Part shown: piece after piece, positions 16,172 to 43,475 of the stretch
Layout of the letters: each line of letters opens with the position of its first letter
How positions within the stretch are numbered: the first letter of the stretch is position 1
NCBI RefSeq assembly: GCF_010669225.1
Contig: NZ_CP048627.1
Location: forward strand, 1 to 64,000
Length of the DNA: 64,000 bases
Direction: 5' to 3'
Source of the DNA: Megamonas funiformis
GTDB taxonomy: Bacteria; Bacillota; Negativicutes; Selenomonadales; Selenomonadaceae
Notes under the pieces: generated by a model
The model's database searches: none
What the model was told of the DNA's origin: nothing
What the model saw: only the letters and a program-made list of their open reading frames with translations
Position numbers and translations under genes: made by a program

Positions 16172-16480
16172 AAAAAACCTCCGCCCCATAAAGGGACGGA
16201 GGTTATATTTCCGCGGTACCACCCTGATTTTGTCTTAATTATAGACAACAGCTCTCAACGTACATCATAATACGCGTTTCTTATAACGTAGAACAAACGT
16301 TTTAGCTTACTGGATTTCAGCTAAAATCTTCAAGGATGATTTTCATTTTTCTTTTGGCTACCACTTTTCAGCAAAATAGTGGCTCTCTGTAAGCTTTAAG
16401 GAAAAATTACTTGTTCCTATCTCTAGATTTATACTTTATTTTATATTTACAAATTTACAAAACTCATTGTAGATTAATAT
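16172..16480 (-). ncRNA. T-box leader RNA upstream of ACS transporter
   Basis: On the minus strand the leader runs through a stem-I region with an AGAGAGCC element (about 16388-16381) and the invariant T-box AGGGTGGTACCGCG (16225-16212). It ends in a strong terminator, stem 16178-16202 with U tract 16177-16172. The specifier loop is probably the GAAAATCATCC segment (16344-16334). ATC (Ile, 16340-16338) or AAT (Asn, 16341-16339) could be the specifier, and the reading is not certain. T-boxes sense uncharged tRNA and permit readthrough. Confidence 0.93.
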
Positions 16481-39833: not shown

Positions 39834-41129
39834 ATGACAAAAACAGCAAGACAATTACAAGAAGAAGGATTATTATACGATGTTTTTGAACAAGAATTAA
39901 CTGATATAAAAGATAGAACATATGGTTTAGTCAGTGAATTGAGTAGAGTTAGTCATTTTGATACGGAATATGTAATGTCTTTAGTAAGAAAAATAGTAGC
40001 GAAAATAGGTCAAGATAGCTATATTGTGCCACCATTTCGTTGTGATTATGGTGACCATGTATTTATTGGCAATAACACATATATAAATTACAATTGTTGC
40101 TTTTTAGACTCAGCAAAAGTTACGATTGGCGATTATGTGTATATGGGGCCAAATTGTAATATTTTCACACCATGTCATCCTATTCATTATGAACTACGTA
40201 AGGAAAAAGTAACTGAATACGCACTTCCTGTAACAGTAGGTTCACATAGCTGGATTGGTGGAGATGTAGTCATCACTCCAGGTGTTACTATTGGTGAAAA
40301 TTGCGTCATTGGTGCAGGTTCTGTAGTAACAAAAGATATTCCAGATAATTCAATTGCTGTAGGTAATCCTTGTAAAGTAATTAGACAGGTAAATGATAAA
40401 GACAGAGAATATATAAATAGTTTGATTTTGGATGATGAAACAAAAGATAGCAAATATAAACAAGAAAATGGTTATGTTTATAGTGCCAAAGATGAAGCTA
40501 TTTTTAATATAGTGAAAGATACAGTTCATTATGTAGAGATTTTAAATAAATTATCTAATAGTGAAATTCAGCGTCGTAGAGATTTCTTAAGAACTTTTGT
40601 GGCAAAATTAGATGAAGGTGCTATGATTAATAGTCCATTTTATATGGAATTTGCAAATCATTTAGAAATGGGTGTAAATAGCTTTATCAATTATGACTGT
40701 ATCATGCTTAATAATGCGATGGTAAAATTGGGTGATAATGTATTAGTTGGGCCAAAAGTAAGTTTCTATACAGCTATACATCCAATTGACGCTAAACAAC
40801 GTGAACAATGGCTTGTATATGCTAAGCCAATAACTGTTGAAGATAATGTATGGATTGGTGGTTCAGCTACTATTTTAGGTGGCGTAACTATTGGTAAAAA
40901 TGCCATTGTAGGTGCTGGTGCAGTAGTAACAAAAGACGTTGAGCCAAATACAATAGTAGTGGGTAATCCTGCTAGAGTTTTGCGTAAAATCACAGCAGAA
41001 GATAGTAAGAAATATCAAGAAGAATTAGCAAAACAAAAAGATGTAAATAAAAGTGAATTTGATTATTGTAAGCCGCACACTTGTGATTTTAATCATGAGT
41101 TAGGCAAACAAAATAGTCAGCGTATATAG
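39834..41129 (+). CDS. Tandem-domain maltose/galactoside-type O-acetyltransferase
   Basis: The 431 residues contain two complete left-handed beta-helix acetyltransferase domains of the Maa/LacA type. Domain 1 (1-190) has IVPPFRCDYGDHVFIGNNTY, HPIHYE with the catalytic-position His, and GNPCKVI. Domain 2 (about 215-395) has INSPFYMEF, HPIDAKQRE with its His, and GNPARVLRK. Ordinary members are about 185 residues with one domain, so this is a fusion or internal duplication. A related third gene begins 4 bp downstream but is interrupted by the IStron. Acetyl-CoA is the usual donor. The acceptor sugar is unknown. Confidence 0.88.
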   Translation: MTKTARQLQEEGLLYDVFEQELTDIKDRTYGLVSELSRVSHFDTEYVMSLVRKIVAKIGQDSYIVPPFRCDYGDHVFIGNNTYINYNCCFLDSAKVTIGDYVYMGPNCNIFTPCHPIHYELRKEKVTEYALPVTVGSHSWIGGDVVITPGVTIGENCVIGAGSVVTKDIPDNSIAVGNPCKVIRQVNDKDREYINSLILDDETKDSKYKQENGYVYSAKDEAIFNIVKDTVHYVEILNKLSNSEIQRRRDFLRTFVAKLDEGAMINSPFYMEFANHLEMGVNSFINYDCIMLNNAMVKLGDNVLVGPKVSFYTAIHPIDAKQREQWLVYAKPITVEDNVWIGGSATILGGVTIGKNAIVGAGAVVTKDVEPNTIVVGNPARVLRKITAEDSKKYQEELAKQKDVNKSEFDYCKPHTCDFNHELGKQNSQRI

Positions 41130-41133
41130 AAAT

Positions 41134-41166
41134 ATGTACGTAGAGATAGACAAAGAGCTATCCAAT
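41134..41166 (+). other. Putative 5' exon of interrupted acetyltransferase gene
   Basis: From ATG 41134 the frame reads MYVEIDKELSN and then stops a few codons later (TGA at 41173-41175) inside the mobile element. If joined to the coding sequence resuming at 42903 it reads MYVEIDKELSN-KMMAGQWYNAMD, a good Maa-type N-terminus. The exact splice point is uncertain by several bases. No clear ribosome site precedes this ATG, but it is 4 bp after the previous stop. Confidence 0.55.
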
Positions 41167-41460
41167 ACTGTTTGAATTGCTGGAAAACCCTAAAGATATT
41201 TGAACTACAACGTAAACATGAAATAAAGTTAAGCGTGAATGTGGCGAAAGCAGAAAAAATCAGATATATAGCATAAGGTTAAATCCTAAGTGCTGAAAAA
41301 TGGATAATCAGCAGCGAAGCTCCGAAAAGGAGAACGTTCAACGACTATTCCTCTTGAGGGAAGTACTCAGTAAGCGATTGACTGAGGAAGTGGACAGACT
41401 CTAACAGGTAAAGCTGAGGGATAAGATATAGTCTGTGCCGTTATGAAAGTAACGGAAGTT
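41160..41460 (+). ncRNA. Group I intron ribozyme of the IStron
   Basis: The catalytic core elements occur in order. P: GAATTGCTGGAAAACCC near 41174-41190. Q: AATCAGCAGCGAAGCT from 41306. R: GTTCAACGACTA (41336-41347). S: AAGATATAGTC (41423-41433). P and Q pair as GCTG/CAGC (P4). R and S pair as GACTA/TAGTC (P7). P8 (TTCCTC/AGGGAA), a P7.1-like CTCAGT/ACTGAG stem and a P9 stem CCGTT/AACGG (about 41439-41457) are visible. No homing endonuclease lies within the core. Confidence 0.87.
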
Positions 41461-41687
41461 CATAAGAGAACTGTATAGAAAGTAGCGTTTCTATATGAAC
41501 GAGACCTCATAATACGACTAAAGTAAAACCTAGAGTTCTTGTATATGTTATTTAAAATATATAAACACTTGTTATATTACTATAGATATGTCATGATTAT
41601 ATTGAGTGACAGTATGAAAGTAATTCATGGTAGAGGATATAAATTATAGAATATATCTAAAATCAGAAGAAAGAGTAAGTGTTTATT

Positions 41688-42797
41688 ATGGAAAAAGCTT
41701 ATAAATTTAGGATATACCCTAACAAAACACAAGAGTGTTTACTTCAAAAAACTTTTGGCTGTGTACGTTTTATATATAATCACTTTTTAGATAAAAGAAT
41801 TAAAGCATATGAACAAAATAAGAAGACTATAAGTTATAACGAATGTTCAAAAGAGCTTACTCAATTAAAAAAAGAAAAAAAGTGGCTCAAAGAACCAGAT
41901 AAATCCTCTTTACAAAATGCTTTAAAGAATTTAGATACAGCTTATAAAAACTTTTTTAATAGACAAAAAGCAGGCTTTCCTAAATTCAAATCTAAAAAGA
42001 ATCGGTATAAATCGTACAAAACAAATATGACAAATAACAACATTGTATTTTTAGAAAATAAAATAAAACTACCTAAAATAGGCAAGATTAAAACAAGAGA
42101 TAAATATCGCCAAATAGAAGGTAGAATTTTAAGTGCGACAGTATCACAAACTCCTAGTGGAAAATATTACGTTGCACTATGTTGTACAGACCTGCCTCAA
42201 CCTGAACTCATCAAAACGAATAAATATGTTGGCTTAGATTTAGGGATAAAAGATTTTGTCATAACCTCAGATGCAGTAAAATATAGCAATCCTAAATACT
42301 TGCAAAAATCACTGACTAGATTAGCTAAACTCCAAAGAGAGCTTTCTCGAAAAACAAAAGGAAGCTCAAATTGGGAAAAGGCTAGAGTAAAAGTGGCTAA
42401 ATTGCATGATAGAATTGCCAATCAAAGACATAATTTACTACATCAAGTAACATGTCAACTTATCAGAAATTACGATGTAATCTGTCTTGAAGATTTACAA
42501 GTTGAAAACATGATGAAAAATCATAAATTAGCAAGAAATATAGCTGATGTTAGTTGGTCAGAGTTTATGAGACAACTAACATATAAAGCAAAATGGTTTG
42601 GCAGGGTTATTGTCAAAATAGACAAATTTTATCCTTCAAGCCAATTATGTCATATTTGTGGGTATAAAAATATTGAAGTAAAAAACTTAAATGTTAGAAA
42701 ATGGAATTGTCCTAAATGTAAAACACATCACGATAGGGATGTAAATGCAGCTATAAATATTAGAAATGAAGGATTAAGAATATTAAACATAGCATAA
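41688..42797 (+). CDS. tnpB: TnpB RNA-guided nuclease of IS605-type element
   Basis: Compact RNA-guided DNA nuclease encoded by IS200/IS605 elements and ancestral to Cas12. The 369 residues start [15 protein letters not shown]. The RuvC triad is intact: Asp184 (GLDLGIKD), Glu268 (ICLEDLQ) and Asp351 (HDRDVNAAI). A zinc ribbon uses Cys321, Cys324, Cys341 and Cys344. The ATG at 41688 is preferred over an in-frame GTG 9 bp earlier. The gene lies between the group I intron and the omega-RNA region. It should cut DNA matching the sequence just beyond the right end and so help retain the element. Confidence 0.95.
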
Positions 42798-42902
42798 ATA
42801 ACATATACAAGAACCGTAGGAACTATGGGGATAGCTCGGAGATACTGTATTCGTTAGAATACTTGACCGAGAATTCTGCGACTTTAGTCGTGGGAGGTTC
42901 AG
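42700..42902 (+). ncRNA. Omega-RNA (TnpB guide RNA) scaffold and right end
   Basis: After the tnpB stop the right end folds into CTCGG...CCGAG enclosing GTATTC/GAATAC (about 42835-42872), then a CGACT/AGTCG hairpin (near 42880-42890), then GGGAGGTTCA. This short terminal hairpin motif is characteristic of TnpB-associated RNAs. The guide would be host sequence from about 42903 on. The 5' limit inside tnpB is estimated. Confidence 0.75.
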
Positions 42903-42905
42903 AAG

Positions 42906-43475
42906 ATGATGGCTGGTCAATGGTATAATGCAATGGATTATTCTATGTTGAAAATGCGTCAAGAAAATAATAAAAAGACAGAAGCATATAGCAGAATAAC
43001 TATAAATACTTTGTCTTATAAAGATAGAATAGCAAAAGCTATTGTTAAAGAATTTGGTGAAAATGCTAATATCATACCACCGTTTACTTGTGATTATGGT
43101 TGTAATGTAAAAGTAGGAAATAATACAGTTATTAATCATAGTGGTGTATTTTTGGATACGAATGAAATCAATATTGGTAAACATGCTTTAATTGGGCCAA
43201 AATCTGGGCTTTATGGAGCTATACATCCTTTTGATGTAGAAGCTAGAAATGAAGGCATTGAAAAAGCAAAGACAATTAATATCGGTGATGGTGCTTGGCT
43301 TGGTGGTAAAGTAACAGTAGTACCAGGTGTAAGCATTGGTAAACATTCAGTGATTGGTGCAGGTTCAGTAGTAACAAAAGATATACCAGATGATGTAGTA
43401 GCAGTAGGTAATCCTTGTCGAGTGATTAGAAAAATTACAGAAGATGACAAAATAAATCCAATTCGCAAAAAATAA
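42906..43475 (+). CDS. Maa-type O-acetyltransferase, interrupted by IStron (3' part)
   Basis: Hexapeptide-repeat acetyltransferase of 189 residues as it stands. It has MAGQWYNAMD at the N-terminus (the Maa capping domain usually begins about 10 residues earlier), IIPPFTCDYG near 58-67, GAIHPFDVEARNEG with the catalytic-position His near 101-114, and GNPCRVIRK near the end. ATG 42906 has GGGAGG 8 bp upstream, but that site belongs to the IStron right end. The true N-terminus is probably supplied by the exon at 41134 after intron splicing. Without splicing, a shortened protein could still be made. It is related to both domains of the preceding gene. Confidence 0.85.
   Translation: MMAGQWYNAMDYSMLKMRQENNKKTEAYSRITINTLSYKDRIAKAIVKEFGENANIIPPFTCDYGCNVKVGNNTVINHSGVFLDTNEINIGKHALIGPKSGLYGAIHPFDVEARNEGIEKAKTINIGDGAWLGGKVTVVPGVSIGKHSVIGAGSVVTKDIPDDVVAVGNPCRVIRKITEDDKINPIRKK

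What the first reader, a model, noticed from the sequence alone, without database searches (positions are those of the whole stretch)
41134..43475. IStron inserted in an acetyltransferase gene whose reading frame is restored by splicing
Seen: group I intron core elements P, Q, R and S (41174-41433), then tnpB with an intact RuvC triad, then a TnpB-type right end. The reading frame before the element (MYVEIDKELSN from 41134) and the frame after it (KMMAGQWYNAMD from 42903) are in register and together form a plausible maltose-acetyltransferase N-terminus. Known: IStrons such as CdISt1 join a group I intron to an IS605-type element and splice out of host mRNA. Inference: this Negativicute copy is a splicing-competent IStron that leaves the host gene functional. 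The exact exon ends (5' near 41159-41169, 3' near 42900-42902) are not fixed.
Basis: partly seen in the sequence, partly recalled or inferred. Interest (0 to 1): 0.9.

Follow-up and report, generated by a model that had tools for sequence, protein, structure and literature searches.

The report
Known IStron (self-splicing transposon), MfISt1-type

Summary
A group I intron (Rfam RF00028, 70.5 bits) plus an ISDra2-like TnpB with an intact RuvC triad form a group A IStron of 1839 bp. Five copies in this genome and twelve in a sister species fix its ends at 41064-42902, directly after a TTGAT target (41059-41063) and ending in TTCAG. The true 5' exon is the upstream ORF (39834-41063). Joined to 42903-43475 it gives one 600-aa, three-domain hexapeptide acyltransferase; the sister species has an uninterrupted 620-aa orthologue, 69% identical and gap-free across the junction. 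In all, 15 of 17 copies lie inside genes, all sense, all with the frame restored; 13 have uninterrupted orthologues, all gap-free. Intron-less IS200/IS605 copies avoid genes (p = 2e-5). Splicing in the cell is very likely, but no RNA was seen. The element matches MfISt1 of Megamonas funiformis (1839 bp), published in 2014. It is already known; the host-gene census, and spread without any cognate TnpA, are the parts of interest.

The parts
39834..41063 (+). 5' exon: first two hexapeptide acyltransferase domains of the host gene (410 codons), ending ...NKSEFD
   Evidence: Open frame; Hexapep domains; joined frame; gap-free alignment to the uninterrupted 620-aa orthologue in G001.
41059..41063 (+). 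TTGAT target pentanucleotide; last five bases of the 5' exon, paired in P1
   Evidence: Present before all 17 copies; group A target in PMC4227781.
41064..42902 (+). Complete IStron (MfISt1-type), 1839 bp: group I intron with tnpB inside
   Evidence: Ends fixed by alignment of 5 own-genome copies and 12 sister-species copies and by gap-free orthologues at the junctions; length equals published MfISt1.
41116..41120 (+). Internal guide sequence GUCAG, pairing with exon UUGAU; U41063-G41116 wobble marks the 5' splice site
   Evidence: Fold; six P1 pairs paired in all 5 sequences including two C. difficile elements (these columns do not vary).
41079..41100 (+). Left-end subterminal hairpin (transposon end) nested in the P1 loop
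   Evidence: 100% paired, one pair with a compensatory change against C. difficile copies.
41120..41141 (+).
   Evidence: 9 pairs, 3 with changes on both sides against C. difficile copies.
41116..41455 (+). Group I intron catalytic core match (RF00028); P7 strands at 41343-41348 and 41428-41433
   Evidence: 70.5 bits, E 2.1e-17; P7 strands read from the sequence.
41535..41553 (+). 5' arm of a 19-bp inverted repeat enclosing tnpB
   Evidence: Perfect complement of 42796-42814.
41688..42797 (+). tnpB (369 aa; RuvC D-E-D and zinc ribbon intact); an upstream GTG start at 41679 is possible
   Evidence: PF01385, PF07282, PF12323; ISDra2 TnpB match; motifs.
42796..42814 (+). 3' arm of the inverted repeat
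42798..42902 (+). Right end: subterminal hairpin and probable omega-RNA scaffold, ending ...GGGAGGTTCAG with the terminal G as 3' splice site
   Evidence: Conserved in all copies; C. difficile elements also end GGGAGGTTCAG; omega-RNA role inferred from ISDra2 homology.
42903..43475 (+). 3' exon: third hexapeptide acyltransferase domain, KMMAGQWYNAMD... (190 codons + stop)

Best explanation
This is a group A IStron, almost certainly MfISt1. As DNA it is an IS200/IS605-type transposon inserted after TTGAT without target duplication. As RNA it is a class IA2 group I intron whose internal guide (GUCAG) recognises the same UUGAU, so the ribozyme cuts exactly where the transposon joined and ligates the flanks, restoring the host reading frame. 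TnpB, with an omega-RNA from the right end, presumably cuts empty sites (TTGAT plus the downstream flank) and so favours retention. Shown here: anatomy, exact ends, frame restoration and uninterrupted orthologues. Inferred: splicing in the cell, TnpB cleavage, and the source of mobility.
For: RF00028 match. Exact ends from 17 copies. 15 of 17 copies are inside genes, all sense, with the ORF restored on exact removal. 13 host genes with a relative lacking the element align gap-free across the junction, including cmk-, pyrF-, hldE-, lpdA- and CCA-nucleotidyltransferase-like genes and the window gene. The share of copies in genes (88%) equals the share of TTGAT sites in genes (about 90%), whereas intron-less IS200/IS605 copies in the same genome avoid genes (1 of 13 at most, Fisher p 1.7e-5). 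P1 with a U-G pair at the junction, and the same P1/hairpin/P2 layout with compensatory changes in C. difficile elements. Published MfISt1 has the same size and features.
Against: No RNA data. Sense orientation alone is weak evidence: against a same-strand local null it gives p 0.24, since these transposons are known to enter the lagging-strand template and genes are co-oriented. The intron-less control elements use other target motifs.
Confidence: 0.93

Rival explanations
1. A degenerate IStron that no longer splices, leaving the host gene split into two separately translated proteins.
For: No transcript seen; the third domain could be translated alone from ATG 42906 or 42909; short copies with deleted tnpB exist.
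Against: The core, P1 and both ends are intact and near-identical in all genic copies. Insertions sit in genes expected to be needed (cmk-, pyrF-, hldE- and CCA-nucleotidyltransferase-like) in places that should abolish function without splicing.
Confidence: 0.05
2. One reading: exon 1 is a short acetyltransferase N-terminus starting at 41134, and the intron starts near 41159-41169.
For: MYVEIDKELSN is in register with 42903.
Against: That stretch is conserved in all 17 insertions in unrelated genes. Orthologues match the 41063/42903 junction gap-free instead. P1 lies at 41059-41120.
Confidence: 0.01
3. A plain IS200/IS605 TnpB element next to an unrelated intron-like sequence, inserted between two complete genes.
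For: The upstream ORF runs on 21 codons into the element to a stop (41129), and the downstream ORF has its own ATG, so gene callers would list two genes.
Against: The sister genome has one uninterrupted 620-aa gene spanning the junction. Intron and tnpB move as one unit in 14 copies, and the intron with deleted tnpB in three more.
Confidence: 0.01

Closest known systems
MfISt1 of Megamonas funiformis (Tourasse et al. 2014, PMC4227781)
   Same: 1839 bp; Negativicutes host; IA2 group I intron; truncated ORF A plus ORF B; IS200/IS605 type; TTGAT-type target and TCAG end for the group.
   Different: The paper lists one full-length copy per strain; here there are five in this genome and twelve in a sister species. 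The paper's sequence and host gene could not be compared (supplement not available).
CdISt1 of Clostridioides difficile
   Same: TTGAT target, GGGAGGTTCAG end, same P1/IGS (AUAGUCAG), same left-end hairpin and P2 layout; about 69% DNA identity over 96% of the element.
   Different: Some CdISt1 copies carry full ORF A (paper); sequence diverged; stem bases changed in a compensatory way.
ISDra2 (IS8301) of Deinococcus radiodurans
   Same: TnpB clearly homologous over its length (E 6e-115 to 8bf8); the paper reports the same TTGAT target and similar ends as CdISt1.
   Different: No intron; has its own TnpA (established knowledge and PMC4227781).

Membership tests
Group A IStron | Group I intron at the 5' part of the element | tested here: met
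   RF00028 70.5 bits, over the gathering score of 50.
Group A IStron | Insertion directly after TTGAT (or ATTAT, TTTAT), no target duplication | tested here: met
   All 17 copies follow TTGAT; orthologues show no duplicated bases.
Group A IStron | 3' end TCAG | tested here: met
   GGTTCAG end in all copies.
Group A IStron | IS200/IS605 ORF B (TnpB) downstream of P9.2 after a GAACGA-like motif, ORFs flanked by an inverted repeat | tested here: met
   GAACGA at 41497-41502; tnpB; 19-bp inverted repeat. The repeat is longer and more AU-rich than the 6-10 bp the paper gives for group A. P9.2 itself was not modelled.
Group A IStron | U-G pair at the 5' splice site flanked by P1 pairs on both sides | tested here: met
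   U41063-G41116 within a six-pair stem, paired in all 5 aligned sequences.
Group A IStron | Class IA2 (P7.1, P7.2, P9.0-P9.2) | not tested
   Peripheral helices were not modelled; class taken from the paper for MfISt1.
Group A IStron | Self-splicing that rejoins the exons | not testable with these tools
   Only genomic inference.
TnpB RNA-guided nuclease | RuvC D-E-D triad and zinc ribbon | tested here: met
TnpB RNA-guided nuclease | omega-RNA-guided cleavage next to the TTGAT motif | not testable with these tools
   Inferred from homology.
Autonomous IS200/IS605 transposon | Y1 transposase TnpA in the element | tested here: not met
   No tnpA between the intron and tnpB; Y1 genes elsewhere in both genomes belong to elements with other ends.

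The most novel reading that the evidence does not exclude
Twelve near-identical copies in a single-contig sister genome with no cognate TTGAT transposase suggest the element may spread by a route other than its own TnpA, for example help from a foreign TnpA, TnpB-driven copying into cut sites, or a route that uses the intron RNA.
Probability: 0.12. Interest if true: 0.7.

Novelty: already known. Interest (0 to 1): 0.3.

Why it matters
It supports, with a natural experiment of 17 insertions in two related genomes, the idea that an intron makes a transposon nearly harmless in genes: IStrons land in genes as often as their target motif does, while intron-less relatives are kept out. It also gives a ready set of host genes, several probably essential, for testing splicing in living cells, and restates the open question of how IStrons move without TnpA.

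Tried and rejected
Sense orientation as proof of splicing was downgraded: p 3.7e-4 against all TTGAT sites, but 0.24 against same-strand local sites. The bias to codon phase 0 (13 of 15) is explained by the motif: TTGAT holds TGA, so phase 1 is nearly barred, and 75% of sense sites are phase 0 (p 0.23). No cognate tnpA was found in either genome. Genome-wide search for related loci with TnpB gave only distant TnpBs, and a check of eight of them gave no intron match over the gathering score with the fast filters. My first P1 structure string was one column off and was redone. [quoted passage not shown]

Full report
What was claimed.

Check of the observation. A focused Rfam search gives Intron_gpI (RF00028) at 41116-41455, 70.5 bits against a gathering score of 50; the fast whole-window scan had missed it. 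The ORF at 41688-42797 is TnpB (PF01385, PF07282, PF12323). Its best natural solved relative is ISDra2 TnpB (8bf8, E 6e-115), with the RuvC D, E and D motifs present.

Exact ends. The own genome holds five copies and a sister species in the same genus twelve. Aligned, they share everything from just after TTGAT to GGTTCAG and differ outside. In the window this sets the element at 41064-42902, 1839 bp, after TTGAT at 41059-41063. Its start falls on the P2 stem.

Host gene. Removing 41064-42902 joins the upstream ORF (39834-41063, two hexapeptide domains) in frame to 42903-43475 (a third domain)...NKSEFD|KMMAGQWYNAMD..., 600 aa. The sister genome has an uninterrupted 620-aa ORF that covers the junction and aligns at 69% identity with no gap there.

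All copies. Of 17 copies, 15 lie inside a gene, all in sense, all with the ORF restored; two are intergenic. Judged by eye from the translations (no family search was run on these), the host genes resemble hldE/rfaE1, a Crp/Fnr regulator, a lytic transglycosylase, lpdA, pyrF, cmk, a CCA-type nucleotidyltransferase, asparaginase, an aldo-keto reductase, an O-methyltransferase, a HAD phosphatase, modC, a PilN-like gene, one unidentified gene and the window gene. For 13 of these an element-free orthologue was found in the sister species or family, and every one is gap-free across the predicted junction.

Is it more than chance? About 90% of TTGAT sites lie in genes, so 15 of 17 in genes is what a cost-free element would show. 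Intron-less IS200/IS605 elements of the same genome are at most 1 of 13 in genes and none in sense (Fisher p 1.7e-5). The four Y1 elements of the sister genome also appear intergenic. Sense orientation by itself is not strong evidence once strand is taken into account (p 0.24). The surplus of phase 0 is explained by the motif.

RNA mechanism. The exon UUGAU pairs with GUCAG at 41116-41120 and places a U-G wobble at the 5' splice site. The transposon's left-end hairpin sits in the P1 loop, followed by P2. Two C. difficile elements fold the same way; all six counted P1 pairs are retained, and five pairs in the other stems carry changes on both sides, 10 cells against 4 expected from shuffling. 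The P1 pairs themselves do not vary, so they give no covariation support. The 3' splice site is the final G of GGTTCAG. The ribozyme and the transposon thus recognise the same TTGAT, so the spliced RNA equals the uninserted gene (inference from anatomy; splicing was not observed).

What is known. IStrons were surveyed in 2014 (PMC4227781). Table 1 lists MfISt1 of Megamonas funiformis: 1839 bp, IA2, truncated ORF A plus ORF B, IS200/IS605, group A. The window element has the same length and every tested group A feature. No tool named the organism, so identity with MfISt1 is very likely but not proven letter by letter. The finding is therefore already known as a kind and probably as an element.

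What is left open. No cognate TnpA was found: Y1 genes in both genomes belong to elements with other ends, although twelve near-identical copies exist in the sister genome. The 2014 paper raised the same puzzle. The one copy with a change in the P7 strand (L118, C to U) is also one of the two intergenic copies and has lost tnpB, which fits relaxed selection but is a single case.

Noticed in passing
window 16189-16432 (-): T-box leader riboswitch (RF00230, 149.5 bits).
   Followed up: no
L118 (sister genome G001, 1320600-1327600): 835-bp IStron without tnpB, intergenic, with a C-to-U change in the 5' strand of P7; two further tnpB-deleted copies of 1115 bp (L116, L122) sit in genes and still restore the frame.
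   Followed up: partly
G000 and G001: No TnpA with TTGAT-type ends in either genome, although twelve near-identical IStron copies exist in G001: the mobilising enzyme is unknown.
   Followed up: partly
window 42808-42925; L200 2382-2436: Sub-threshold Rfam matches at IStron right ends: Ref70 (Enterococcus sRNA 70) in the window and RAGATH-18 in a C. difficile element. These families may partly represent TnpB omega-RNAs.
   Followed up: no
L029/L204 and L024/L207 (genome G005, another genus): The same TTGAT left-end hairpin at contig ends, one after an ORF that resembles rnhB: probable IStrons broken by assembly, so IStron-split genes may be mis-annotated or lost in drafts.
   Followed up: partly
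window 41535-41553 with 42796-42814: A perfect 19-bp AU-rich inverted repeat encloses tnpB, longer than the 6-10 bp reported for group A IStrons and more like group B.
   Followed up: partly
L189 (G000 2359300-2365700): A single intron-less tnpA+tnpB element whose tnpB is related to the IStron's (75% over 196 bases near the 3' end).
   Followed up: partly
window 41116-41455: The Rfam gathering scan of the full 64 kb missed an intron that scores 20 bits above threshold in a short scan, so fast filters can hide IStrons.
   Followed up: yes
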